Shown here: piece after piece, positions 3,204-25,814 of the stretch
How positions within the stretch are numbered: the first letter of the stretch is position 1
How the letters are laid out: each line of letters begins with the position of its first letter
Source of the DNA: a virus
Reading direction: 5' to 3' (one strand)
Virus record (IMG/VR): IMGVR_UViG_3300030117_005155
Coordinates: 1-38,163 of that record
DNA: 38,163 nt
Position numbers and translations under genes: made by a program
The notes under the pieces: generated by a model
The model's input: only the letters and a program-made list of their open reading frames with translations
Database searches by the model: none
Told to the model about the DNA's origin: nothing

Positions 3204-3437
3204 ATGAGTAAAACACTAAATCATATCATGCCATCAAGTTTGGCGAGCGGCTTGTGTAAGCGTGAAGATAAAAATAAAGTACCTCACCGTTGGCTGCCAA
3301 GCGGGCAGTCTCGGGCGCTTCATGATAATCATGTAGGCGTTGAGTGTTACTGCAAGCACTGTGGATTACGAGAGTGGGGCACAGTTACTCGTCATGAATT
3401 TGTCGTACTAACAGAGTCTTGGAAGGAGTTACAATGA
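3204..3437 (+). CDS. Small Cys-containing protein of unknown function
   Basis: This 77-residue product is not recognised. Its middle holds ECYCKHCGLREWG, whose CxCxxC spacing could bind a metal, preceded by a histidine-containing stretch. The AAAGGG upstream at usual distance supports the ATG at 3204. It is co-transcribed with the GroES-like gene, which begins in its stop codon, but nothing links the two functions beyond that. Confidence 0.6.
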   Translation: MSKTLNHIMPSSLASGLCKREDKNKVPHRWLPSGQSRALHDNHVGVECYCKHCGLREWGTVTRHEFVVLTESWKELQ

Positions 3438-3691
3438 GGCCAGTAAACAGACGATTACTCGTAGAATTATTTGAGGAAGAAGAAGAGAGTCCACTTTTTA
3501 TTCTACCTGAAGACTTCCAGGAAAAATCTCATAGATCGTACAAGGTACTAGCCACGGCAAGGGATTGCAGTATGGATCTAAAAGTAGGAGAGGTTGTTAT
3601 TGCTCACACTTCAGACCCAGAAACAATTACCTTTGAAGGCAAAGAACACTTGTTATTGTTAGAGAATCATGTTGTCTGTGTGGTTGATTAG
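3434..3691 (+). CDS. groES: GroES-like co-chaperonin
   Basis: This is a co-chaperonin that would cap a GroEL cavity, made either by the host or by the phage GroEL at 24222. The 85 residues follow the GroES plan: RPVNRRLLVEL at the N-terminus, an acidic stretch followed by PLFILPED where GroES has GGIVLPD after its mobile loop, then LKVGEVVIAHTSD and FEGKEHLLLLENHVVCVVD matching the GroES C-terminal strands. I chose ATG 3434 over the upstream TTG at 3419 because AAGGAG sits 5 nt before it and it overlaps the previous stop as ATGA. The mobile loop is shortened and acidic. T4 gp31 is a functional precedent. It ends tail to tail with the minus-strand lipoprotein gene, their stop codons overlapping. 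Confidence 0.78.
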   Translation: MRPVNRRLLVELFEEEEESPLFILPEDFQEKSHRSYKVLATARDCSMDLKVGEVVIAHTSDPETITFEGKEHLLLLENHVVCVVD

Positions 3692-4956
3692 TTACCGATA
3701 CACAGATCCTGAAAGATATTTTTGATCTGCAAAAACACCGTTTCTGAATTTGCAGTTGGTGTGTAGAGCCTGTCTCTTTCACCCCGCACACAATTTATAA
3801 ATGTGTTATGATGTTGCTCAAGGGCGAAAACAAATAGTTCAAACCCTAAAGTGTTTGATAACTCGCCAACTTCAAAACAAGTCATTGGGTGGGAATACAT
3901 TGTCTGTGCTTCTTCATCAGTCATTGTTATAATAACTTTCTGTGCGTCTGGCCGCCAGGAAAATGGATAGGTGTTCATTGACCAGTACATCGTGTCTATT
4001 GTTGGTTCTTGACCAGCACTGTCAATCATTCTACCAGCCTCTATCACATCAAGAAACTCGTCAGCATAGACAAAATCAGACACCATCCTAGCGAGATGGT
4101 ATTCTGGTCTTAGATCTGATCCTGCCCTAGCACCAACAACAACTAATCCAAAACGAAATGTACTTGTAATCGGGTCTTCTAAAAGAGGGGCTATACCTTG
4201 GATCATAGAGTCAATCTCATCTCGGAAAGAACCAGATATATCTAAAACAAATACTAGGTCTACACCACGACTATCAAAGCCCTCATCCACTTCGCCATCA
4301 CAATCATTATCTAGATTATCGCATCGCTCAATAACTGGTAAAACTTGACCATCACAAGGACCACCAAAGTCTCCATCCGTACAATAACGGACACCTGCTC
4401 GGCACTCACCGACAGCGAGCGTGCCCTCTGGACCCTCATAACACACAACAGCAGTTGCACCGACTATCCCTTCGTCAGCCGTGCCATTACAATTATTATC
4501 AATTCCATCACAGGTTTCTTCAGTTGGTCCAACATGGCCATCACAATATAATCCACCATTGTCACACTTCATTACACCTGGCGTACATATGCCTACACCA
4601 TAGTCCACGTTTTCTTGGAACCCACACAGTTGGTGTTCTTCTGGGTATGTTTCATCAATAGCTGCATCGCAGTCATTATCTATGCCATCGCAAATTTCTT
4701 CACTTGATCCCCTCGCACCCACACATTCTGACCACCCGTTAAGTGTGCAGGTTCTTAATCCATAGGAGCATTGCCCTGCTCTTTGGGGTATATCAACTGG
4801 ATCTGCATTAGGGAAGTCTTGATCAAGTTCATCGCAAACAATTTGTTCGCCTGGGACACACTCCAGCCTCACTAGATCTTCGTCTGATGAACAACCGCTG
4901 AATAGCGAGGCAACACATAATAATAATGCTATTTTGTTCTTACTTGTTCTAAACAT
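3688..4956 (-). CDS. Surface lipoprotein with MopE-type repeats and a vWA domain
   Basis: This is probably a secreted, membrane-anchored metal-binding adhesion protein. It has a lipoprotein signal with lipobox LFSGC (C22), then three CDGIDNDCD-type acidic Cys repeats near residues 89-102, 149-162 and 212-225, as in the putative metal-binding MopE motif family. A von Willebrand A domain follows with intact MIDAS DISGS at 239-243 and a later TMTDEE. The total is 422 residues. This architecture is characteristic of Myxococcota and relatives and unusual for a phage, so it was probably acquired from a host. It is the last gene of a three-gene minus-strand set and overlaps its upstream neighbour by 28 nt. 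Its function in infection is unknown. Confidence 0.8.
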   Translation of the reverse strand: MFRTSKNKIALLLCVASLFSGCSSDEDLVRLECVPGEQIVCDELDQDFPNADPVDIPQRAGQCSYGLRTCTLNGWSECVGARGSSEEICDGIDNDCDAAIDETYPEEHQLCGFQENVDYGVGICTPGVMKCDNGGLYCDGHVGPTEETCDGIDNNCNGTADEGIVGATAVVCYEGPEGTLAVGECRAGVRYCTDGDFGGPCDGQVLPVIERCDNLDNDCDGEVDEGFDSRGVDLVFVLDISGSFRDEIDSMIQGIAPLLEDPITSTFRFGLVVVGARAGSDLRPEYHLARMVSDFVYADEFLDVIEAGRMIDSAGQEPTIDTMYWSMNTYPFSWRPDAQKVIITMTDEEAQTMYSHPMTCFEVGELSNTLGFELFVFALEQHHNTFINCVRGERDRLYTPTANSETVFLQIKNIFQDLCIGN

Positions 4957-5776: not shown

Positions 5777-6640
5777 ATGAACACTAAGAAAACATTTCGT
5801 AATCTGGTTTACTTCTTAATTTTGTTGCAAGTTGGATGTTCCACAACAATATCTAATAATAACAAAGCAGTTTCTAGTGTTGCGGGCTTGCCTGTCAGCC
5901 AAAGTATGCCAAAAGAGTCTTTCTTTAAATTTCAAGTGGCTCAAGCCGTTGAGGCATGTTTGCACTACGAAGATAAGAAAGATGAATGCACTGTTGGTGT
6001 CGTTCGGCATACGTCATCAGGAGCTTTTGTAGGTAGGAGCGAAGTCAGGAAAGATGTAGCATATGGTCTAACAGCAGGACACTCTTGCCAGGATAAATTT
6101 GCTAAGAAGTCTAACAAGGATATTAGCTTCAAGGTAGTCTCGGCAGATTATCTTGCACTTATGTTCAATGGCAAACTAAGAAGAGCAGAAATTATTTCAT
6201 ATGATACAAAGTCAGACTTATGTCTACTTCGTGTGTATGGTTTCAACAATAACAGGCCTGCCCCACTAAAAATCGCAGATAAATTTCCTAAGTGGGGAGA
6301 GAAGGTGTATAACATGGCAGCACCACGAGGAATATTTAGCCCAGGGATGTTGTTAATGTTTGACGGATACTACGCTGGGATAGGGTTTGACAACTACATG
6401 TTCTTTTCATTGCCAACCAAGCCAGGGTCCAGTGGTTCACCAATATTAAATGCAAAGAAGGAATTGGTATCCATGATATTTGCTGGGTTTCCTGCAATGG
6501 AAAATATTGGACTTGGATCAAACCTAACAGCTATAAGAAGCTTTGTAACAAATAAAGTTGCGCTGTCGGAGGCTGACCTATGGGCAAAAAAGAATTTGAA
6601 TAAAGATAGAACTGAAACTACCACAACAGAGGGCAGGTAG
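5777..6640 (+). CDS. Trypsin-like serine protease lipoprotein (S1/DegS-like fold)
   Basis: This is a predicted periplasmic, lipid-anchored protease of 287 residues. The signal ends in LLQVGC (lipobox). The catalytic triad is readable in order: His in LTAGHSC, Asp in TKSDLCLLRV, Ser in KPGSSGSPI. This matches chymotrypsin-fold proteases such as the DegP/DegS clan, but I see no PDZ domain after the protease core; the last 30 residues are charged. It begins the plus-strand half of the envelope island and is followed 6 bp later by a single-pass membrane protein and then an M50 protease. Outer- versus inner-membrane sorting is undecided. Substrate unknown. Confidence 0.82.
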   Translation: MNTKKTFRNLVYFLILLQVGCSTTISNNNKAVSSVAGLPVSQSMPKESFFKFQVAQAVEACLHYEDKKDECTVGVVRHTSSGAFVGRSEVRKDVAYGLTAGHSCQDKFAKKSNKDISFKVVSADYLALMFNGKLRRAEIISYDTKSDLCLLRVYGFNNNRPAPLKIADKFPKWGEKVYNMAAPRGIFSPGMLLMFDGYYAGIGFDNYMFFSLPTKPGSSGSPILNAKKELVSMIFAGFPAMENIGLGSNLTAIRSFVTNKVALSEADLWAKKNLNKDRTETTTTEGR

Positions 6641-6646
6641 ATTGCC

Positions 6647-7135
6647 ATGGACAGAGAAAGAGAAGCCTGGCAGAACATGAGAGACAGTGCTTACGAGACG
6701 ATCAGCGACTCGCAGGTATATGAATATGATCTCTTCCCCATCAAGGAGGCCAAGCCAAACTATCTTTCAGCATTTGTTTGGACAACTTTAGTTGCAGCAA
6801 TGGTCTGCGCAATATATACGGGCTTCTTGCTGTACTTGTTTAATAGTAGTGGACTAGAAGATAATCTTAGGAAAGCTACTAACCATGCGATCATTAATTT
6901 AGAGCGAGTCATAGAACTACAGAACAAAGAGATATCAGCGCTCAAAACCGAAAACAAAAAGATATATGACTATCTGCAACTCTGGACACCGCTTGATGTT
7001 CAAAAGTATCGTCGGCAACAAGAAAATAAATATAAGCCACCTACAGAGGAAGATGTGTGGAACTTAGGTCCAGATATACCAATCAATAGATACAACCTCT
7101 GTGATGAGGAGCGATTACTATGGTCTTGCTATTAG
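6647..7135 (+). CDS. Single-pass membrane protein with coiled coil
   Basis: The 162-residue product has a 40-residue polar N-terminal segment, one transmembrane helix (about residues 40-66, YLSAFVWTTLVAAMVCAIYT), and a C-terminal side starting with a coiled coil (about 72-105, NLERVIELQNKEISALKTEN). The topology, with a short N-terminal segment on one side and an extended domain on the other, is that of an anti-sigma factor such as RseA or of a spanin, but no sequence match was recognised. It sits between a serine protease and a site-2 protease and overlaps the latter by 16 nt, which makes it a candidate substrate or partner. That role is inference. Confidence 0.65.
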   Translation: MDREREAWQNMRDSAYETISDSQVYEYDLFPIKEAKPNYLSAFVWTTLVAAMVCAIYTGFLLYLFNSSGLEDNLRKATNHAIINLERVIELQNKEISALKTENKKIYDYLQLWTPLDVQKYRRQQENKYKPPTEEDVWNLGPDIPINRYNLCDEERLLWSCY

Positions 7136-7920
7136 CAATTATAATAGGTTTAATATTCATTCATGAGCTAGGTCACTATGTCGCTGGGCGTCTTAGTGGT
7201 TTTGGCATAGAGGAATTTGCAATTGGTTTTGGTAAAGAACTTGCCAGCTTCAATGCACTAGGGAACAAGTGGTCTTTTAGACTCATACCACTTGGTGGTT
7301 ATGTTCGTTTTGAGGGCGAGGCAGACTATGATAATGTTCTTCAGAGTAAAACATCTTTTTGGGGCAAGCACCCATTACAAAGATTATTTGTTGCGCTTGC
7401 AGGACCAGCAGCAAATTTACTTTTGCCTTACGCTTTGTTCTTTGTGTATTTCCATGGTATGCCCTGGCCAGATGTGAAAGCCCCTGATGGTTCTGAGGTT
7501 GGTAAAATCAGTGCTTACTGGGCTGCTAAGGCCAGCATAAACACAACCAATAATTTATACGCTAGTATAGGAGAAGCTGTCAGCCAGCTAGGCGATCGTG
7601 GTATAAAAGCGACTGATGTCGGTGGACCAGTGGCGATGTATGATATGACGGAGCAAGCTAGGAAACAATCGTCCTCCACTAAAGACAATGGCTTTTTGTA
7701 TCAGTGGATCGCATTCCTTAGTATTAATATTGGGTTCATGAATTTATTACCAATACCTTTACTAGATGGAGGACATGTGGTAATATCAATTGTAGAAACA
7801 GTAATCGGTAGAAATATAAAACGTAGAACAAGAAACATATTAACTTATGTAGGGTTAGCGATTGTCGGTCTTATAATGTGTTTGGCTATCTTCTCTGATG
7901 TAGGCAGACTGTTTTCTTAA
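7120..7920 (+). CDS. M50 site-2 (intramembrane) metalloprotease, RseP-like without PDZ
   Basis: This zinc protease cleaves transmembrane segments within the membrane. HELGH is at residues 15-19 in the first helix, LIPLGGYVRFEGE is the beta-loop typical of RseP-type enzymes, and NLLPIPLLDGGH at 208-219 supplies the third zinc ligand (D216). Only about 85 residues lie between the second and third membrane helices, too few for the PDZ domains found in RseP, so the 266-residue protein is a minimal form. The start overlaps the previous gene, with GAGGAGCG as ribosome site. Membership of M50 is firm; the substrate is unknown. Confidence 0.9.
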   Translation: MVLLLAIIIGLIFIHELGHYVAGRLSGFGIEEFAIGFGKELASFNALGNKWSFRLIPLGGYVRFEGEADYDNVLQSKTSFWGKHPLQRLFVALAGPAANLLLPYALFFVYFHGMPWPDVKAPDGSEVGKISAYWAAKASINTTNNLYASIGEAVSQLGDRGIKATDVGGPVAMYDMTEQARKQSSSTKDNGFLYQWIAFLSINIGFMNLLPIPLLDGGHVVISIVETVIGRNIKRRTRNILTYVGLAIVGLIMCLAIFSDVGRLFS

Positions 7921-11958: not shown

Positions 11959-12198
11959 ATGAAGAAGATTACTAAGCAAACACTACAGCAAATTATCAAA
12001 GAAGAGGTTGCTAGGGAACTCAACGAAGAGTACAGCGCACAAATGGAAGTGCTGTTCCAAGAGCTTATGCGAGTAGCCCAAGAGATGGGCGGAACGCCAG
12101 AGATTATGGATGATCTTCTAGCTATGCAGAATCGCCACGGCGGAACAAAGCCAAGTGGCAAGCGTGTTGATGTAGACATGAGCAAGATGGATATCTAG
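11959..12198 (+). CDS. Array member 1: prohead-targeting-type peptide, short acidic protein
   Basis: The 79-residue product begins MKKITKQTLQQIIKEEV, the shared leader with one extra lysine. I use ATG 11959, not ATG 11950, because GAAGGAG ends 10 nt before it and the leader then lines up with its neighbours. The rest is helical and rich in M, E and Q, with no known domain. Predicted trimming would follow I-K-E. Confidence 0.7.
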   Translation: MKKITKQTLQQIIKEEVARELNEEYSAQMEVLFQELMRVAQEMGGTPEIMDDLLAMQNRHGGTKPSGKRVDVDMSKMDI

Positions 12199-12208
12199 GG
12201 GATAAAAC

Positions 12209-12580
12209 ATGAAAGAACTATTGACGGAGTGGCGCAAGTATATCACAGAGGCCAGGTATTCTGGCAACCAACTTGAACGACGAGATGAAACTGTTAAAGC
12301 AATCCTCAAGGAGCTTGGCTTGGACAGTAATGAAGATACAGACAGAGCGACATACGGGTATACTTACACTCTTAGGTCTGTTGCACAAGGAAGAGATCTT
12401 AACGACAAGCAGACGTCGGTGCTAAAAGATCCTCGCTTTGCAGCAGCCACGGGTGCCTTTATGGAACTTAAGAAAGAACTAGAAGACCAAGATGCTGACC
12501 CAGAAATAATCTTGGACGCCGCAACAATGTTAACAAAAGAAGCAGGTCGCCGTCTACCAGACGATGATGATTTCGGGTGA
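12209..12580 (+). CDS. Array member 2: variant leader MKELLTEWRKYITEA
   Basis: This 123-residue protein is the odd one in the array. Its leader differs in sequence from the MKITK type but has the same length and ends I12-T13-E14 then A15, the same form of processing site. T4 internal protein III has a comparable FIAEA end. The body is acidic and helical (ELKKELEDQDADPEIILDA) with no recognised domain. AGGGG upstream supports the start. Confidence 0.68.
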   Translation: MKELLTEWRKYITEARYSGNQLERRDETVKAILKELGLDSNEDTDRATYGYTYTLRSVAQGRDLNDKQTSVLKDPRFAAATGAFMELKKELEDQDADPEIILDAATMLTKEAGRRLPDDDDFG

Positions 12581-12590
12581 GGGGTAAAAA

Positions 12591-13013
12591 ATGAAGATTA
12601 CAAAATCACAACTACGACAAATGATTAAAGAAGAGGTCGCAAAAGAAATCAATTCGGATGAAAATATACAAGAGTTTCTTGGCGGTCTTAAGAAGTTTAT
12701 TAAAGGCGGATCAGATCAGCTTGACCCTTACAGTGCTAAAGAGCAGTCAGCTATTGAGCAGCTTGCCCTGAGAATTGAACAAGACAAAGAGGGTAAGTAC
12801 AAAGAAGCCACACAAAAAATGTATAGAAAAGATAGAGTCAAGGGCGAAGAAGCCATCTCTGTCGCCATAGCTATGCTTGGTGAGCCTGGGTTTAGCCGCA
12901 AAAAATCATCTCCAGAGAAGGGTCCAACATTGCGCCAAAGATCCGTTGCTGCTGGTACTAAGAAGCCAGAAAGATATTATGACCATAAGTCAAAAGGGTT
13001 CAAAGTACGATGA
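12591..13013 (+). CDS. Array member 3: MKITKSQLRQMIKEE leader, basic C-terminus
   Basis: The product is 140 residues. The leader is followed by an acidic segment and a LGGLKKFIKGG patch, then a lysine/arginine-rich C-terminal half (KDRVKGEEA, SRKKSSPEKGP, PERYYDHKSKGFKVR). A basic body after an acid leader would suit an internal protein that contacts packaged DNA. GAGGGG precedes the start. Its stop overlaps the next start by 4 nt. Confidence 0.7.
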   Translation: MKITKSQLRQMIKEEVAKEINSDENIQEFLGGLKKFIKGGSDQLDPYSAKEQSAIEQLALRIEQDKEGKYKEATQKMYRKDRVKGEEAISVAIAMLGEPGFSRKKSSPEKGPTLRQRSVAAGTKKPERYYDHKSKGFKVR

Positions 13014-13249
13014 AGATTACAAAACAACAATTACAACAAATAATCAAAGAGGAACTCCTCAAGGAACGGTTGGACGAAGAACTTGAGGTTGTTATGGAAC
13101 TCCTAGAGAAAGCACGGGAACTTCTTGGAGATTACATTAGAGAACAGGGGGGCGACTACCATCCGCTTAGCGACGCAGCAGATGAACTTAGCTCCGTAAT
13201 TAGTGCAGTTAACAGCAGCGGCGGCGAAGGCGCTGGATTTGGGTTTTAA
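13010..13249 (+). CDS. Array member 4: MKITKQQLQQIIKEELLKE leader
   Basis: The 79-residue acidic protein shares its first 19 residues exactly with array member 6, although ten of those codons differ by synonymous changes. The body (VVMELLEKARELLGDYIREQ) is helical and ends in a Gly/Ser-rich tail. It is coupled to member 3 by an ATGA overlap. No known domain. Confidence 0.7.
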   Translation: MKITKQQLQQIIKEELLKERLDEELEVVMELLEKARELLGDYIREQGGDYHPLSDAADELSSVISAVNSSGGEGAGFGF

Positions 13250-13250
13250 T

Positions 13251-13529
13251 ATGAAAATAACAAAACAACAACTACGAAAGATGATAAAGGAAGAGCTTGA
13301 GGCGACCTTGGGCGAAGGCGGCGCTGTTGGCGACAGCAGGGAACCTCTTGACCGCATGAGCAGTTCAAACCGCCCCGTAAGTTCGTATAGCCGAAAAGAA
13401 CTCACGATGGCATTAGCGGAAATCCCTCAACTAGAAAACCCTAAATACGCTGGTCGTCTTCCAGATCATATTCCTCAATGGATTGAGGATGTTAAAGCAA
13501 AAGCAGCAGAGGTGGGGTTAATAAAATGA
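13251..13529 (+). CDS. Array member 5: MKITKQQLRKMIKEE leader
   Basis: I place the start at ATG 13251, 1 nt after the previous stop; the open frame extends upstream to 13203 but that would bury the leader. The 92-residue product has a Gly-rich, Ser/Arg linker after the leader, then a helical region ending WIEDVKAKAAEVGLIK. No recognised family. Confidence 0.7.
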   Translation: MKITKQQLRKMIKEELEATLGEGGAVGDSREPLDRMSSSNRPVSSYSRKELTMALAEIPQLENPKYAGRLPDHIPQWIEDVKAKAAEVGLIK

Positions 13530-13759
13530 AAATCACCAAACAACAACTACAACAGATTATTAAAGAAGAGCTACTCAAGGAAGAGTACACACAACAACTG
13601 CTGGCAAATGCAGAGGGTGCTATACAAAGCCTTGTAGATGATGAAGATATAACAGGTCTATCTTTTCAGGATGGCAGAGTTAAGGAACTTCGTCGCTGCC
13701 TTGAAGAACTTTTTGAGATGGCATACGCTGAAGAAAGCAGGCTAGGATACCGACCATGA
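13526..13759 (+). CDS. Array member 6: MKITKQQLQQIIKEELLKE leader
   Basis: This 77-residue acidic, mostly helical protein has a leader identical over 19 residues to member 4. It is coupled by ATGA overlaps to both neighbours. The body is glutamate-rich (ELRRCLEELFEMAYAEES) with no known fold. Confidence 0.7.
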   Translation: MKITKQQLQQIIKEELLKEEYTQQLLANAEGAIQSLVDDEDITGLSFQDGRVKELRRCLEELFEMAYAEESRLGYRP

Positions 13760-14055
13760 AGATTACAAAAACACAACTACGAAAGATTATTCAAGAAGAG
13801 TTACTCAAAGAGATGCCTGACTATGAGGCAAACGACAAGGCGATGGGAGAAATAGCACTTGAACTTGGCCGCAAGCTTGTGGGTGCCCCTCATATCGTCA
13901 AGCCTATCGTAGATGCTTTGTTAACGCCCACAAAGAATTATGAAACAGGCGAGAAGAAACCTCAGTATCCAATTGCTGCCGCCGCTCTTCAAAAAGGCTA
14001 TGATGAGTCACAAGGGTTTCTTGATGACCAATATATTGGAGTGGATGACGACTAA
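13756..14055 (+). CDS. Array member 7: MKITKTQLRKIIQEE leader
   Basis: The 99-residue product has a leader ending I-Q-E, then a helical segment (MGEIALELGRKLVGAPHIVKPIVDALL) and a lysine/proline stretch before an acidic end (GVDDD). It is not recognised. Its stop TAA shares one base with the next ATG (TAATG). Confidence 0.7.
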   Translation: MKITKTQLRKIIQEELLKEMPDYEANDKAMGEIALELGRKLVGAPHIVKPIVDALLTPTKNYETGEKKPQYPIAAAALQKGYDESQGFLDDQYIGVDDD

Positions 14056-14420
14056 TGAAGATTTCAAAAACACAACTACAACAGATTATTAAAGAAGCCA
14101 AAATGGCTGAGTACGGAAAGATTGATGCAGAGGACGGCAATCCTCCTTCAAAGATTGGACAAGGCAACCCAGATTATATGGAAGCATATAATGCAGTCCT
14201 TATCGCCAAAGGCGAAGATCCACTTCCTATGAAAAAGCCTGACCAAGCTTATCTTGATGCCATGCCTAGTGTCAAAGAAGAGATTTCAGATCGTGACAAA
14301 GACACGATGAATGACGTTATAGCAGAGCTTAAGAAAGCTGTGCAAGCACACAAGTCCCAGCATGAAAGACTACAGGCCATCTTAGACAGGCTTGAAAACA
14401 GTAACGGCGAAGAAGATTAG
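14055..14420 (+). CDS. Array member 8: MKISKTQLQQIIKEA leader
   Basis: The product is 121 residues; the leader ends I-K-E then A. The middle resembles a small phage protein with DYMEAYNAVLIAKGEDPLPMKKP, followed by a C-terminal coiled-coil-like helix (VIAELKKAVQAHKSQHERLQ). No domain recognised; coupled to member 7. Confidence 0.7.
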   Translation: MKISKTQLQQIIKEAKMAEYGKIDAEDGNPPSKIGQGNPDYMEAYNAVLIAKGEDPLPMKKPDQAYLDAMPSVKEEISDRDKDTMNDVIAELKKAVQAHKSQHERLQAILDRLENSNGEED

Positions 14421-14422
14421 CC

Positions 14423-14905
14423 GTGAAGATCACCAAAGATCAAATACGTCAAATGATTAGAGAAGCACTCAGCACCGACGAAGCGGACGTGCAGTTCATG
14501 GTTGACGCTTATGTTAAGCAATTTGGTGGTATTGACAAAGTTAAGAATGCTACCGAAGGTAAAGGCGACAAAGAAGAAAAGGTACAATACACTATCAATA
14601 ATCTTAAGAGTAGATTTGATAAACTGCCTTTTGAGCTTATAAACAAAGCTGCGGTGCAAATAGTCAAAATGGCTGGACTTCTAGATGAAAAGCAGTCAAT
14701 CAATATGAAAGATGTTGAAATAAAAGAAGAGATAATCATGAGACATCTTAAAGAAATGTTTGATGAATTGGGCAGAGAAGATCTGCCAAAAAGATTCTCA
14801 GAAGTCTCTTTACTAAAACCAATTATAGATCGCTACATATCTGCTAGAAGAAATGTACGCACACCTTACTTTGATAAGTTAACAGGGAGAATGAAAAACA
14901 AATGA
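14423..14905 (+). CDS. Array member 9: MKITKDQIRQMIREA leader, GTG start
   Basis: The start is GTG at 14423, 2 nt after the previous stop; it brings the leader into register, so I accept it. The 160-residue body is helical and lysine-rich (FGGIDKVKNATEGKGDKEEKV, RYISARRNVRTPYFDKL). No family recognised. The stop overlaps member 10 as ATGA. Confidence 0.7.
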   Translation: MKITKDQIRQMIREALSTDEADVQFMVDAYVKQFGGIDKVKNATEGKGDKEEKVQYTINNLKSRFDKLPFELINKAAVQIVKMAGLLDEKQSINMKDVEIKEEIIMRHLKEMFDELGREDLPKRFSEVSLLKPIIDRYISARRNVRTPYFDKLTGRMKNK

Positions 14906-16299
14906 AGATTTCAGTAACTGAACTACGCAAGATGATTAAAGAAGCGACAATGGGTGAAGAGCAGTTCGCAGAACTAGAAGCTGCCCGTGAAGCGTTTGAT
15001 AAAAACCGAGGGACGGGTCGTGCAATGGATGGTGATGCTCTCTCTAATTTCTTATCTTTGGTTGAGAAACTTGTAGAGCCAGTTATGATTGACATTGGAC
15101 CTCTGTTCTTTGAGATGGAAGCCTTTATGAATCGTGGCGAGCTTGTATTCAACAATAATAAAGTAGAAGTTACTATTGATCCCTTGGGCAAGAAGGACAA
15201 GTATGAAGTTGATATCAGTCCACAGTATGGTGCAGAAGATGACATTCAGCCAATGAAGGCAGCTTTCCCTACCATGAAGGGCGCACTTCAATTTGTTCAC
15301 GATAAGATCGGTGACAAGGAGTTTTCCCCTGAAAGGGTTGGAGAGCCAAAAGGGCAAGGCGAGTTGCCACTAGAAAACAAAATGAAAGTACAAGGTCTAA
15401 GAGATCTAATCAAAAAGCAAATCCAAGAGATACAGAAAGACCGTATGTCTTATTTGCTCAACCTTAATGAAGAAGTCTTAGAAGAAGGCGTCTACGATCC
15501 AGGTATCCTTAAGGCTGTCTTTACAGCAGGTGGGCCAGGCAGTGGCAAGTCTTATGTTGCTGATGTGATGTTTGATGCCCGAGAGGCTGGCAAGGATAAA
15601 ATGTTTGATGCTGCTTCGTTTATTGGTCGCTTTGGTCTTAAGTATGTTAACAGCGACAACCTATTTGAAATTGGTCTGAAGAAGATGGGCATCCCACTTG
15701 CTGACCTGGGCGCAATCTCACAGGCTGCCAAAGAAGGTGGTGAATACAAAGGAGAAGATGCCAAAGAAGTAGCTGAGAAGATCGGTTTACTTGGCAAGAG
15801 AGGCGATTCAGTCCGTGCTATCGCCAAGGGCAAGCTTGCAAAGCTAAAAGATTTTTACACCGCTGGTCGCTTGGGTATGCTGATTGACGGCACTGGTAAA
15901 GACTTTGGCAAGATGGCAAAGAAAAAACAAGCACTAGATGCGCTTGGCTATGACTCGTACATGATCTTTGTAGACACTTCACTTGAGAACGCATTGGCTC
16001 AGAACGCTAAGCGTGAAAGAAAGCTTGACCCAGAAGAAGTGGAAAAGATGTGGAATAGAGTCCAGGCTAACAAAGAAGACTTTCAGGAGCTATTCGGCGT
16101 TGACAACTTTACAATCGTTGTTAACAATGAGCCAGTACCACCAACCAGGGAAGCCACTAGGGCCGTGCAACGATTTGTTGAAGCACCAGTTGCCAACCCA
16201 CTAGGTCAAAACTGGATCAATGTTCAGCTTGCTGCTAAGGACACTTCGGGTGACGCACCCTCAGAAGAGCCTTCAGAAGAAGCTCCAGAAGAAGAGTAA
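14902..16299 (+). CDS. Array member 10: targeting leader fused to a P-loop (zeta-toxin-like) kinase domain
   Basis: This 465-residue protein begins MKISVTELRKMIKEA. Residues 20-180 form an acidic, unrecognised region. From about 205 a P-loop kinase fold follows: VFTAGGPGSGKS (Walker A at 210-217), a substrate loop, MLIDGTGKDFGKM, YMIFVDTSLENALAQNAKRERKLD (lid-like arginines) and a nucleotide-fold end at TIVVNNEP. The layout resembles zeta-toxin/adenylate-kinase-like kinases. A second I/L-x-E type stretch (NLNEEVLEE, about 187-195) lies just before the kinase and could release it. It has an acidic, proline-rich tail. The substrate is unknown; carriage in the virion is inference from the leader. 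Confidence 0.75.
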   Translation: MKISVTELRKMIKEATMGEEQFAELEAAREAFDKNRGTGRAMDGDALSNFLSLVEKLVEPVMIDIGPLFFEMEAFMNRGELVFNNNKVEVTIDPLGKKDKYEVDISPQYGAEDDIQPMKAAFPTMKGALQFVHDKIGDKEFSPERVGEPKGQGELPLENKMKVQGLRDLIKKQIQEIQKDRMSYLLNLNEEVLEEGVYDPGILKAVFTAGGPGSGKSYVADVMFDAREAGKDKMFDAASFIGRFGLKYVNSDNLFEIGLKKMGIPLADLGAISQAAKEGGEYKGEDAKEVAEKIGLLGKRGDSVRAIAKGKLAKLKDFYTAGRLGMLIDGTGKDFGKMAKKKQALDALGYDSYMIFVDTSLENALAQNAKRERKLDPEEVEKMWNRVQANKEDFQELFGVDNFTIVVNNEPVPPTREATRAVQRFVEAPVANPLGQNWINVQLAAKDTSGDAPSEEPSEEAPEEE

Positions 16300-18014: not shown

Positions 18015-18545
18015 ATGACAAAGAATGATAAACTACTAAATGAGCAAACACTTCGCCGCTGGGCTAAGTTAGCTGATATTTCCGTTATTAATCAGAACCT
18101 CTTCATCAACGAGGCTGCCGAGGTAACCGAGGAAGAGGAAACCGAAGAAGAGACCGTAGCTGAAGAAGTGACCGCAGACGAAGAGCCTGTCGTTGAGCTT
18201 GAAGAGGCAGAGCATGAAGAAGAAGAAATGGACATGCCAGGTGAAGAAGAAATGGACATGGAAGTTGATGCTGAGCCAGAAGCCGAAGAAAACGACGTTG
18301 TTATGGCCATCCTAAAAGCACTTGAGCCATTCGGTGTGGAGATGGATGCTGACGACGAAGAAGGCGAAGAGGAAGAGCCAGCCATGGCACATGAAGATCC
18401 AGCAATGGACCACGGCATGAAAGATGACCCAGCAATGGGTCACGAGCCAGGCATGGGTGACTATGGCAATCGTCAAGATGAAGACGAGTTGACCGAAGCT
18501 GTCCTCAAGCGTGTTCTAGATCGCATTAGCAAGCTTGATAAATAA
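18015..18545 (+). CDS. Highly acidic protein with leader ending INEA (scaffold/internal-head candidate)
   Basis: This is a 176-residue protein. The N-terminal 33 residues (LLNEQTLRRWAKLADI...LFINE) form an amphipathic leader ending I31-N32-E33 then A34, the same site form as the array leaders. The body is dominated by Glu/Asp with short repeats of DPAM(D/G)HG, and the last 20 residues form a helix (TEAVLKRVLDRISKLDK). Acidic, helical, cleavable proteins are typical of prohead cores; that role is inferred. AAGGAG precedes the start, and a strong terminator follows its stop. Confidence 0.68.
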   Translation: MTKNDKLLNEQTLRRWAKLADISVINQNLFINEAAEVTEEEETEEETVAEEVTADEEPVVELEEAEHEEEEMDMPGEEEMDMEVDAEPEAEENDVVMAILKALEPFGVEMDADDEEGEEEEPAMAHEDPAMDHGMKDDPAMGHEPGMGDYGNRQDEDELTEAVLKRVLDRISKLDK

Positions 18546-18616: not shown

Positions 18617-18946
18617 ATGTCCGTAATAAATCACATATTAGATACCCTAAACCTAATAAGCGACAATGGTAAGGTCATTGACGCAAAAAAGTATTTCATG
18701 GCTAAGCGTATCCTAGAGGTAGGCTACGAGAAAATTAAGAGGGAGGGGCTAGACAGTACAGCGATCACTCCTTATGTTACTGCCATATTAGATTATCGTG
18801 CAGACCGATCAGAAATAAAGATAATAAAAGATGAACAAACAGGCCATGATGAAGTATACTGGTACAGGATTGAGAAAGGAAAATCTTATGAATCGCAGGC
18901 GATTGATGCAAACGCTGATGGCACCAAAGAAGAAGACAAAGGCTAA
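18617..18946 (+). CDS. Hypothetical protein directly after a terminator
   Basis: The 109-residue product runs from ATG 18617 (MSVINHILDTLNLISDNGK). The frame is open slightly further upstream, but only into the terminator. There is no ribosome site before this ATG, so an internal start such as the ATG near 18698 is possible. The sequence is helical then charged, ending EEDKG, and overlaps the ClpP-like gene. It looks like small phage proteins of the ILDTLNLISDNGK type, for which I know no function. Confidence 0.55.
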   Translation: MSVINHILDTLNLISDNGKVIDAKKYFMAKRILEVGYEKIKREGLDSTAITPYVTAILDYRADRSEIKIIKDEQTGHDEVYWYRIEKGKSYESQAIDANADGTKEEDKG

Positions 18947-19664
18947 CAGTAAAACTAAGAAGACAGATAAAGAAGAGTTGGCACCCGCAGAAGATCAATT
19001 TGAGATCATCTCCATTGAAGACCTGACGGAAGATGAGATTAGAGAAGTTGTCCCTAATCTAATACAGGTTGACATGGAGAAGTCCAGCCCCAGAGCAATT
19101 AACTTTTGTGGTGATCTCAATGAGGAATCGGCGTCAGCAATCATATCTGCTATGATCTACCATAATCATAACAACAGGCTGGTCATGGTTAATGAGCAGC
19201 AAACAAAACAATACCATGCTGTCAAGCCTATGCAGTTTTATATTTCTACATTTGGTGGCAACGCCGCTGATATGTTTGGCATCCATGACTTGATGGTTTC
19301 CATGAAGCATTCAACTCCTATTGAAACAGTTGGTTTAGGTAAGGTAATGTCAGCAGGTGTCTTGTTGTTGGCCTCGGGCGCAGAGAACAGTCGGTTCATT
19401 GGCGAGAACACAAGAGTTATGATTCACTCTTTGCGAGCAGGTCACGCAGGAGCGATGCATGAACTTGAAACTGAGTACGAAGAAACAAGGTGGTTGCAAG
19501 ACCAGTACGTCCAAGCACTGAGTCGTGTGACAAACATGAGCAAAAGAATGATCAAAAAGATGATGGAACGGAAAACAAATGTTTACATTAATGCTGAACA
19601 AGCTATTGAATATGGTATTGCTGACAAGATACTCAAGCCCAGCTACTGGGACGAAGGTGAGTGA
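18888..19664 (+). CDS. ClpP-like serine protease (candidate prohead or regulatory protease)
   Basis: The fold landmarks are those of ClpP/S14: MQFYISTFGGNAADMFGI, nucleophile Ser in GKVMSAGVLLLASGA, His in TRVMIHSLRAG and the closing YINAEQAIEYGIADKIL. The position that holds the catalytic Asp in ClpP (RDTERD) reads RKTNVY here, so the third triad residue is absent or moved. A lysine-rich 60-residue N-terminal extension replaces the usual ClpP start. ATG 18888 is preceded by AAGGA (7 nt); the frame is open to 18831. It lies among genes with cleavable leaders, making a maturation role plausible. A genuine ClpP homologue is the alternative. Confidence 0.8.
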   Translation: MNRRRLMQTLMAPKKKTKANSKTKKTDKEELAPAEDQFEIISIEDLTEDEIREVVPNLIQVDMEKSSPRAINFCGDLNEESASAIISAMIYHNHNNRLVMVNEQQTKQYHAVKPMQFYISTFGGNAADMFGIHDLMVSMKHSTPIETVGLGKVMSAGVLLLASGAENSRFIGENTRVMIHSLRAGHAGAMHELETEYEETRWLQDQYVQALSRVTNMSKRMIKKMMERKTNVYINAEQAIEYGIADKILKPSYWDEGE

Positions 19665-20331: not shown

Positions 20332-20619
20332 ATGAATTCTTTTAAAATCTCTAAGGCAAGGTTGAAAGAAATTATCCTTGAAGAGCAGATGGCTCTAGAG
20401 GCAGAAACCTTGGAAGAAAAAGCAAAGTCAACTAAAAAATATGATGATAACCCAAAACTCAAGGGCGATCAGGATGAACTTCCAGATCAACTACAGAAAG
20501 CCATTATTGATAAAGAAGGTGGTGATGCTGATGAGGATGATGAAGAAGAGAAGAACGAGAACTTAGACCTTCAAGATATGGTCCGAGAAGAGATTCTGAA
20601 AGCACTAAGAGGGGAGTAA
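20332..20619 (+). CDS. Acidic protein with targeting-type leader (ISKARLKEIILEE)
   Basis: The product is 95 residues. MNSFKISKARLKEIILE ending I15-L16-E17 then E resembles the array leaders shifted by three residues. The rest is charged and low complexity (GGDADEDDEEEKNENLD) with a final amphipathic helix (LQDMVREEILKALRG). A prohead-core or internal-protein role is inferred. It is followed 4 bp later by a 679-residue gene, presumably its partner. Confidence 0.65.
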   Translation: MNSFKISKARLKEIILEEQMALEAETLEEKAKSTKKYDDNPKLKGDQDELPDQLQKAIIDKEGGDADEDDEEEKNENLDLQDMVREEILKALRGE

Positions 20620-22679: not shown

Positions 22680-23615
22680 GTGGGAACACTACTTAGATAC
22701 CCAGGCGGCAAAGCCAAAGCATTAAAAAAGATTATCAAATACTTCCCAGAGGATCTTACCGAGATGGTTAGTCCTTTCTTTGGTGGTGGTGCGATTGAGA
22801 TCCATTACGCACAGAAGCACAAGACAAGAGTGCATGGCTATGATCTATTCTCTCAGTTGGTAAACTTTTGGGAGATGGTACTAATAGATCCAGAACGCCT
22901 AACCGAAGAGGTGGCCATACTAAAGAGTGCCCAGCCAGACCTCACAGAGATTTGGACCGAGATGCAAGACAGGCTTCGTAACACAGAGGTCACTCAAGAT
23001 ACTGCTTTTTTCTTGGCAGCGCTATTTTATGGAATCAATAGATCATCATTTAGTGGGGCTACTTTGAGCGGAGGATGCTCGGGCGAGGCTTACCGCAAGC
23101 GATTCAACGCTGCTAGCATAGAGCGACTAAAGAACTTCAAAGCTCCAACGCTAACTGTAGAGTGCGCTGACTTTGAAGATAGTTTGTCTAGGCACGAGCC
23201 AGATGTATTTGTGTACGCAGATCCACCATATCTATTGGAGAAGTCAACTCTCTATGGAGACAAGGGTTCCATGCACAAAGACTTTGATCATCTCAGGTTA
23301 CATGAGGTCATGACACAAAGAAGCAACTGGGTTATGTCCTATAATCCTCATCCTGAAATTTTAGAACTATACAAAGATTATGAAATAGTATATCCTGAGT
23401 GGGCAATGGGGATGAAGAATATTTATACCCAAGAGGAGACAGACACAAGAAATGCTATAAAACATTGCCAACAGGTTTTGGTAAACATTGCAGATGATCC
23501 CGAGTTCATCCAACAAGCCCAAAGCATATTAAAACAACTTTTATCCCATTACACAAAACCTATGGGAATAGCTAAAGAGATACTCATCTTAAACACTAAG
23601 GAGACAAAAAGATGA
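22680..23615 (+). CDS. dam: DNA adenine methylase, Dam (D12) class
   Basis: This is an N6-adenine methyltransferase using S-adenosylmethionine. LLRYPGGKAKALKKI and SPFFGGGAIEI form the SAM-binding start of the alpha class, and DPPY (residues 181-184, YADPPYLLEKS) is the catalytic motif. 311 residues against 278 for E. coli Dam. The start is GTG 22680 with GAGGG upstream. The target site cannot be read from sequence; GATC is common in the window. It overlaps the FKBP gene by 4 nt. Confidence 0.88.
   Translation: MGTLLRYPGGKAKALKKIIKYFPEDLTEMVSPFFGGGAIEIHYAQKHKTRVHGYDLFSQLVNFWEMVLIDPERLTEEVAILKSAQPDLTEIWTEMQDRLRNTEVTQDTAFFLAALFYGINRSSFSGATLSGGCSGEAYRKRFNAASIERLKNFKAPTLTVECADFEDSLSRHEPDVFVYADPPYLLEKSTLYGDKGSMHKDFDHLRLHEVMTQRSNWVMSYNPHPEILELYKDYEIVYPEWAMGMKNIYTQEETDTRNAIKHCQQVLVNIADDPEFIQQAQSILKQLLSHYTKPMGIAKEILILNTKETKR

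Positions 23616-24057: not shown

Positions 24058-25814
<1,757 letters not shown>

What the first reader, a model, noticed from the sequence alone, without database searches (positions are those of the whole stretch)
12209..12253. Different leader peptides converge on the same length and I-x-E site
MKELLTEWRKYITEA at 12209 has no identity with the MKITK family beyond M-K and the end, but I12-T13-E14|A15 is at the same distance. The acidic protein at 18015 (LFINE|A, position 33) and the one at 20332 (EIILE|E, position 17) add two more forms. Several leader classes with one processing signature suggest distinct docking partners in the prohead core.
Basis: partly seen in the sequence, partly recalled or inferred. 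Interest (0 to 1): 0.66.

Follow-up and report, generated by a model that had tools for sequence, protein, structure and literature searches.

The report
Detachable capsid-entry tags on phage proteins
A family of uncultured water-borne phages appears to fuse one of two short removable peptide tags to dozens of unrelated proteins, most likely to load them into the virus head and later deliver them into the bacterium, as phage T4 does with a few proteins but on a much larger scale.

Summary
MKELLTEWRKYITE is not a quirk of one gene. The leader MKxLLxEWRKF[LIV]xE occurs on 46 body families (79 proteins), and MKITKxQLRxIIKEE on 74 (111 proteins), in one lineage of uncultivated phages. When leaders are chosen by residues 1-9 only, E14 is present in 36 of 42 (background 10%). 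Class-2 conservation collapses right after E14. Relatives carry a T4-type prohead protease (S77), gp20 and gp23; their gp23 maturation site, LL[KR]E|A/S/T/Q, aligns with T4 FLTE65|A and resembles the leader ends. T4's capsid-targeting sequence MKTYQEFIAE has the same spacing. Best reading: T4-type capsid-targeting propeptides, hugely expanded, carrying putative injected effectors.

Corrections: A15 is not conserved (A or V). The class at 20332 is MKITK with a three-residue extension. In the 18015 family the invariant site is LNE10, not INE33. Class 1 often has a second LxE at 18-22, so its cut may not be at E14. One body family carries class 1 in one phage and class 2 in others, which argues against separate destinations. 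Cleavage is untested. "Distinct docking partners" remains unproven.

The parts
12209..12250 (+). class-2 leader MKELLTEWRKYITE (residues 1-14); proposed capsid-targeting propeptide
   Evidence: 13 of 14 columns invariant in 6 orthologues against 52 of 100 in the body
12251..12580 (+). mature body (residues 15-123, plus stop) after the proposed E14|A15 cut; all-helical, no family or fold match
11959..12198 (+). class-1 leader protein MKKITKQTLQQIIKEEVARELNE.. (start at 11959 inferred from orthologue G012 53150)
12591..13013 (+). class-1 leader protein MKITKSQLRQMIKEEVAKE..
13010..13249 (+). class-1 leader protein MKITKQQLQQIIKEELLKE..
13251..13529 (+). class-1 leader protein MKITKQQLRKMIKEELEATLGE|GG.. 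with a T4-like second site (LGE22|G)
13526..13759 (+). class-1 leader protein MKITKQQLQQIIKEELLKEEY..
13756..14055 (+). class-1 leader protein MKITKTQLRKIIQEELLKEMP..
14055..14420 (+). class-1 leader protein MKISKTQLQQIIKE|AKM.. with IxE14|A
14423..14905 (+). class-1 leader protein (GTG start) MKITKDQIRQMIRE|ALS.. with IxE14|A
   Evidence: related protein in G007 at 119411
14902..16299 (+). class-1 leader MKISVTELRKMIKE|ATM on a zeta-toxin/AAA_33 P-loop kinase body; closest window leader to the one at 12209 (9 of 15 identical)
20332..20619 (+). class-1 leader with a three-residue N-terminal extension, MNSFKISKARLKEIILEE; not a separate class
18015..18545 (+). acidic protein; conserved N-terminal MxK..LLNE10|x; LFINE33|A only partly conserved; association with the leader system uncertain

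Best explanation
The 14-residue leader at 12209 and the MKITK leaders beside it are capsid-targeting propeptides of the kind known from phage T4. Each forms a short amphipathic helix appended to an otherwise independent protein. The helix docks on the prohead core through hydrophobic residues (W8 and F/Y11 in class 2; L8 and I11 in class 1), which draws the cargo into the prohead. The T4-type S77 prohead protease, encoded elsewhere in the genome, then cuts after [LIV]-x-E: E14 in class 2, and E14 or a second site at about 18-22 in class 1. The cut frees the cargo inside the head, to be packed with DNA and injected into the next host. Shown here: the modular leader, its sharp conservation boundary, its separation from the predicted fold of the body, the protease and matching gp23 site in relatives, and exchange of leader class on one body family. 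Inferred: docking, cleavage, packaging and injection. The protein at 12209 itself is cargo of unknown activity.
For: Modularity: 79 class-2 proteins in 46 body families and 111 class-1 proteins in 74; three tandem genes in L004 and eight in G012 share the leader but not the body. Boundary: information 3.3 bits at E14, 1.2 at 15, 0.8 at 16 and low beyond; the 44-member consensus is MKxLLxEWRKFLxE followed by no consensus. Non-circular E14 test. Peptide-level conservation: 20-56% of identical-residue codon pairs between paralogues are synonymous variants. Fold: leader pLDDT below 50, body about 90. Protease: S77 in all eight lineage contigs over 150 kb; head module gp20, S77, gp23. Same site: gp23 LL[KR]E|A/S/T/Q aligns with T4 FLTE65|A. 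T4 template: two T4 internal proteins start MKTYQEFIAE; residues 4 and 7 target, 8 and 10 process (PMC9026906), which map onto W8, F11, L12, E14. Cargo includes ART-PolyVal, GNAT, SAM lyase, AAA_33, M74 endopeptidase and LigT-like domains. Specificity: one probable chance hit in 257 Gb of bacterial and archaeal genomes against 26 IMG/VR stretches with the same pattern.
Against: No virion proteomics, cleavage or packaging data exist for this lineage. The window carries no head gene, so the link rests on relatives. P1' is often not A/G/S: class 2 has A/G/S in 20/40 and E in 10/40; class 1 has E in 52/68. In class 1, E15 and residue 16 are about as conserved as E14, which is odd for a cut between 14 and 15. 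T4's leader is 10 residues and only its last seven positions resemble class 2; in T4 the 7-mer profile ranks the two internal proteins 6th and 7th of 272, not first. Leader sets were drawn partly by pattern, and ORFs were called by a simple home-made rule.
Confidence: 0.8

Rival explanations
1. Each class docks on a different prohead-core component; class 1 copies the N-terminal helix of the small core protein encoded next to the protease, and class 2 copies another component.
For: The class-1 profile ranks the head-operon protein MKKSELKNIIKECVKEVIFEEG.. 2nd-7th among about 200-240 non-leader ORFs in seven genomes, and in two more it already matches the class-1 pattern. Class-1 leader genes sit beside the protease gene in G037 and G038. 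In G038 the class-2 profile ranks the protease N-terminus (MAKKLLTEFYELCKDG) first.
Against: Core-protein scores are far below true leaders (-8 to +8 against 20 or more). The orthologous core proteins are not independent observations. The class-2/protease match fails in most genomes (ranks 39-84 in six of nine). One body family uses either leader class.
Confidence: 0.2
2. The leaders are targeting helices for something other than the capsid (a host protein, membrane or phage replication compartment) and are never cut.
For: A short modular amphipathic helix could serve any docking role; many sites lack a small P1' residue.
Against: The boundary exactly at a [LIV]xE motif, the same P3-P1 pattern as the clade's own gp23 maturation site, the T4 spacing match and the effector-type cargo favour capsid targeting.
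Confidence: 0.1
3. The leaders are ordinary N-terminal helices of folded domains, or recent gene duplications that have not yet diverged.
For: A single-sequence model extends helix 2-18 across the site.
Against: With an alignment the leader is excluded from the confident fold. Bodies are unrelated by BLASTP while leaders agree, and codons differ synonymously between paralogues.
Confidence: 0.03

Closest known systems
T4 capsid-targeting sequence of internal proteins IPII/IPIII (MKTYQEFIAE|A)
   Same: Short N-terminal peptide starting MK; aromatic-x-x-aromatic-[IL]-x-E spacing; present on otherwise unrelated small proteins; genome encodes S77 protease, gp20 and gp23
   Different: 14 residues instead of 10; Trp-Arg core; two classes in one genome; about 10-20 leader proteins in the richest genomes against a handful in T4; P1' not restricted to A/G/S
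T4 Alt (packaged and injected ADP-ribosyltransferase)
   Same: ART-type cargo behind a short leader ending in Glu (L004:9141-9497, L030:7302-7832)
   Different: Cargo is small (119-177 aa) and matches ART-PolyVal rather than Alt; packaging not shown
Propeptides of phiKZ/SPN3US head proteins cut after SxE or AxE
   Same: Cut after Glu with few other determinants; large sets of head proteins
   Different: The protease motif there is A/S-x-E and several SPN3US propeptides exceed 100 residues (PMC5694885); here it is [LIV]-x-E with a leader of 14-22 residues

Membership tests
T4-type capsid-targeting sequence (CTS) | Short N-terminal peptide shared by otherwise unrelated proteins | tested here: met
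   46 and 74 body families; no consensus after the leader
T4-type capsid-targeting sequence (CTS) | Peptide ends at a prohead-protease site ([LI]xE) | tested here: met
   Class 2: E14 in 36/42 by non-circular choice. Class 1: E14 in 47/53, but which site would be used is unclear
T4-type capsid-targeting sequence (CTS) | Small residue (A/G/S) after the cut, as in T4 FLTE|A and FIAE|A | tested here: inconclusive
   A/G/S in 20/40 class 2 and 10/68 class 1 at residue 15; clade gp23 itself has A, S, T or Q there
T4-type capsid-targeting sequence (CTS) | Cognate S77 prohead protease with gp23-type head in the same genome | tested here: met
   All eight lineage contigs over 150 kb have S77 and gp23; not in the 38-kb window itself, which is a fragment
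T4-type capsid-targeting sequence (CTS) | Directs the protein into the prohead core | not testable with these tools
   Needs packaging assay or virion proteomics
T4-type capsid-targeting sequence (CTS) | Removed by the protease during head maturation | not testable with these tools
   Needs terminal proteomics or protease assay
Ordinary helix of a folded domain | Leader packed into the confident fold | tested here: not met
   pLDDT below 50 for residues 1-4 and 7-17; body 21-120 about 80-95, from a shallow six-sequence alignment

The most novel reading that the evidence does not exclude
Two leader classes in one phage address two different components of the prohead core (class 1 by copying the core protein encoded beside the protease), giving separate loading routes or positions for dozens of injected effectors.
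Probability: 0.18. Interest if true: 0.78.

Novelty: new variant of a known kind. Interest (0 to 1): 0.6.

Why it matters
If right, a 14-residue signature read straight from DNA lists the predicted capsid cargo and injected-effector repertoire of an uncultivated phage lineage, including ADP-ribosyltransferase, SAM-lyase, acetyltransferase, kinase and 2H-phosphoesterase-like proteins. T4's capsid-targeting principle, known for a handful of proteins, would be a general, expandable loading system with exchangeable tags. It makes the question of which phage proteins enter the cell with the DNA directly testable, and it supplies new tags for packaging tests in T4.

Tried and rejected
Function of the 12209 body: no Pfam, PHROG or fold match, so left unknown. 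Homologues in isolated phages: none for the protein; leader searches in isolates gave only weak hits. Idea that class 2 copies the protease N-terminus: rank 1 in G038 but 39-84 in six of nine genomes, rejected as general. Common descent of the two classes: in-register similarity is highest, but once the anchor columns are removed other helical registers score as well, so undecided. Other apparent mixed-class body families (lysine-rich group; G006_947/G029_7907) were low-complexity or a short motif match and were dropped. Class 1 and 2 patterns in T4, immuto, Mel-JY01 and RM378: none. Literature search for MKITK/MKLTK leaders: none in the held library. Defence-system library on class-2 proteins: one weak ZorA match only, not informative.

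Full report
What is there. The ORF at 12209-12580 begins MKELLTEWRKYITEARYSGN and is followed by a run of MKITK-type ORFs at 12591-16299. Neither the protein nor its predicted all-helical body matches a known family or fold. The window is a 38-kb virus fragment in which no head gene was seen; S77 was searched for and is absent.

The leader is a module. A search with the protein returned two full relatives (about 80% identical) and two contigs that match residues 1-15 only. In one of these, L004, three consecutive genes start MKELLTEWRNFINE|A, MKELLTEWRNFMNE|E and MKEILTEWRKFLTE|A on unrelated bodies. A pattern scan found 40 stretches of viral DNA with the leader. In the sequence fetched by then there were 79 different class-2 proteins in 46 body families and 111 class-1 (MKITK) proteins in 74. 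Relative G012 (DnaE 89% identical) has a mixed array of both classes at 163847-170217, including eight class-2 genes.

More than chance, and not by construction. In ten related contigs the class-2 pattern is seen 39 times against 0.35 in shuffles, and the class-1 core 61 times against 0.17; T4, immuto, Mel-JY01 and RM378 have none. Choosing class 2 by residues 1-9 only, position 11 is F or Y in 42/42 and position 14 is E in 36/42; at least three exceptions have the Glu one residue later. Choosing class 1 by residues 1-5 only, E14 is present in 47/53. Background Glu at 14 is 10%. In class 2, information falls from 3.3 bits at E14 to 1.2 and 0.8 at the next two positions, and stays low. Within orthologues of the window gene 13 of 14 leader columns are invariant, against 52 of 100 in the body. 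Paralogous leaders use different synonymous codons, so selection acts on the peptide.

The leader is not part of the predicted fold. With a six-sequence alignment AlphaFold gives residues 1-4 and 7-17 pLDDT under 50, and most of residues 21-120 about 90.

The protease and its site. All eight lineage contigs over 150 kb encode a T4-type S77 prohead protease. The G012 head module has gp20, S77 and gp23. Of ten further leader-bearing contigs, three hold gp23 and two of these hold S77; the third has gp23 close to its very end. The gp23 maturation site of nine relatives, LL[KR]E followed by A, S, T or Q, aligns with T4 FLTE65|A. Leaders such as WRKYLKE|S and WRKFLKE|G end the same way. In T4, two internal proteins begin MKTYQEFIAE (by length and literature IPII and IPIII); in IPIII residues 4 and 7 direct targeting, and 8 and 10 direct processing (PMC9026906). 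Class 2 keeps that spacing four residues further in: W8, F11, L12, E14.

Cargo. Bodies match ART-PolyVal, GNAT, SAM lyase, AAA_33 kinase, M74 endopeptidase and LigT-like domains, fitting the description of T-even internal proteins as diverse proteins sharing only the targeting sequence (PMC3012670). Several of these matches are below Pfam's curated cut-off.

The two leaders are not without identity: the class-1 leader at 14902 shares 9 of 15 residues. A15 is A or V among orthologues. The 20332 leader is class 1 with a three-residue extension. In the 18015 family the invariant site is LNE10, not INE33. For class 1, conservation runs to residue 16 and 53/66 proteins have a second [LIVMF]xE at 16-27 against 12 and 14 of 66 in control windows; with A/G/S after the Glu, 16 against 0 and 2. 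Class 1 may therefore be cut further downstream.

Do the classes dock differently? One body family carries a class-1 leader in G038 and class-2 leaders in at least three other sequences; the bodies align at 29% identity (E 4e-20), starting near the end of each leader, and there the class-1 form ends ILSE25|A. That favours one destination. The class-1 profile does rank a conserved head-operon protein 2nd-7th in seven genomes, which is a hint of mimicry, but scores are low. I leave the docking question open.

Specificity. A strict class-2 pattern has one hit in 257 Gb of bacterial and archaeal genomes, at a contig edge beside ATP-synthase genes and probably chance, against 26 stretches in viral contigs.

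Not shown: packaging, cleavage and injection. All mechanism beyond sequence and predicted structure is inference.

Noticed in passing
3688-4956 (-): Lipoprotein-like protein with MopE-type metal-binding motifs and a VWA domain, unusual in a phage.
   Followed up: partly
3419-3691 and 24222-25814 (+): Phage-encoded GroES (Cpn10) and GroEL (Cpn60) in one window, together with an FKBP-type isomerase at 23612.
   Followed up: partly
18831-19664 (+): ClpP-like protease; in L004 the class-2 leader array follows directly after a ClpP-like gene.
   Followed up: no
7120-7920 (+): Site-2-type M50 membrane peptidase in a phage, with a trypsin-like protein at 5777.
   Followed up: no
18015-18545 (+) and relatives: Acidic protein family with invariant N-terminal LNE and a conserved C-terminal helix-like end; role unknown, possibly scaffold-like.
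   Followed up: partly
L171:8902-9699 and G012 164610-165948: Lysine-rich class-1 cargo with a YDVWPSAYASGALVKCRK-type motif; a related motif (YDKPSAYRSGAIVRCRKG) occurs behind a different N-terminus in Flavobacterium phage immuto at 111184. Possible internal DNA-binding proteins.
   Followed up: no
G012:14521-14892 and equivalents: Small conserved head-operon protein MKKSELKNIIKECVKEVIFEEG.. directly or closely after the protease in nine genomes; candidate T4 gp67/gp68 counterpart.
   Followed up: partly
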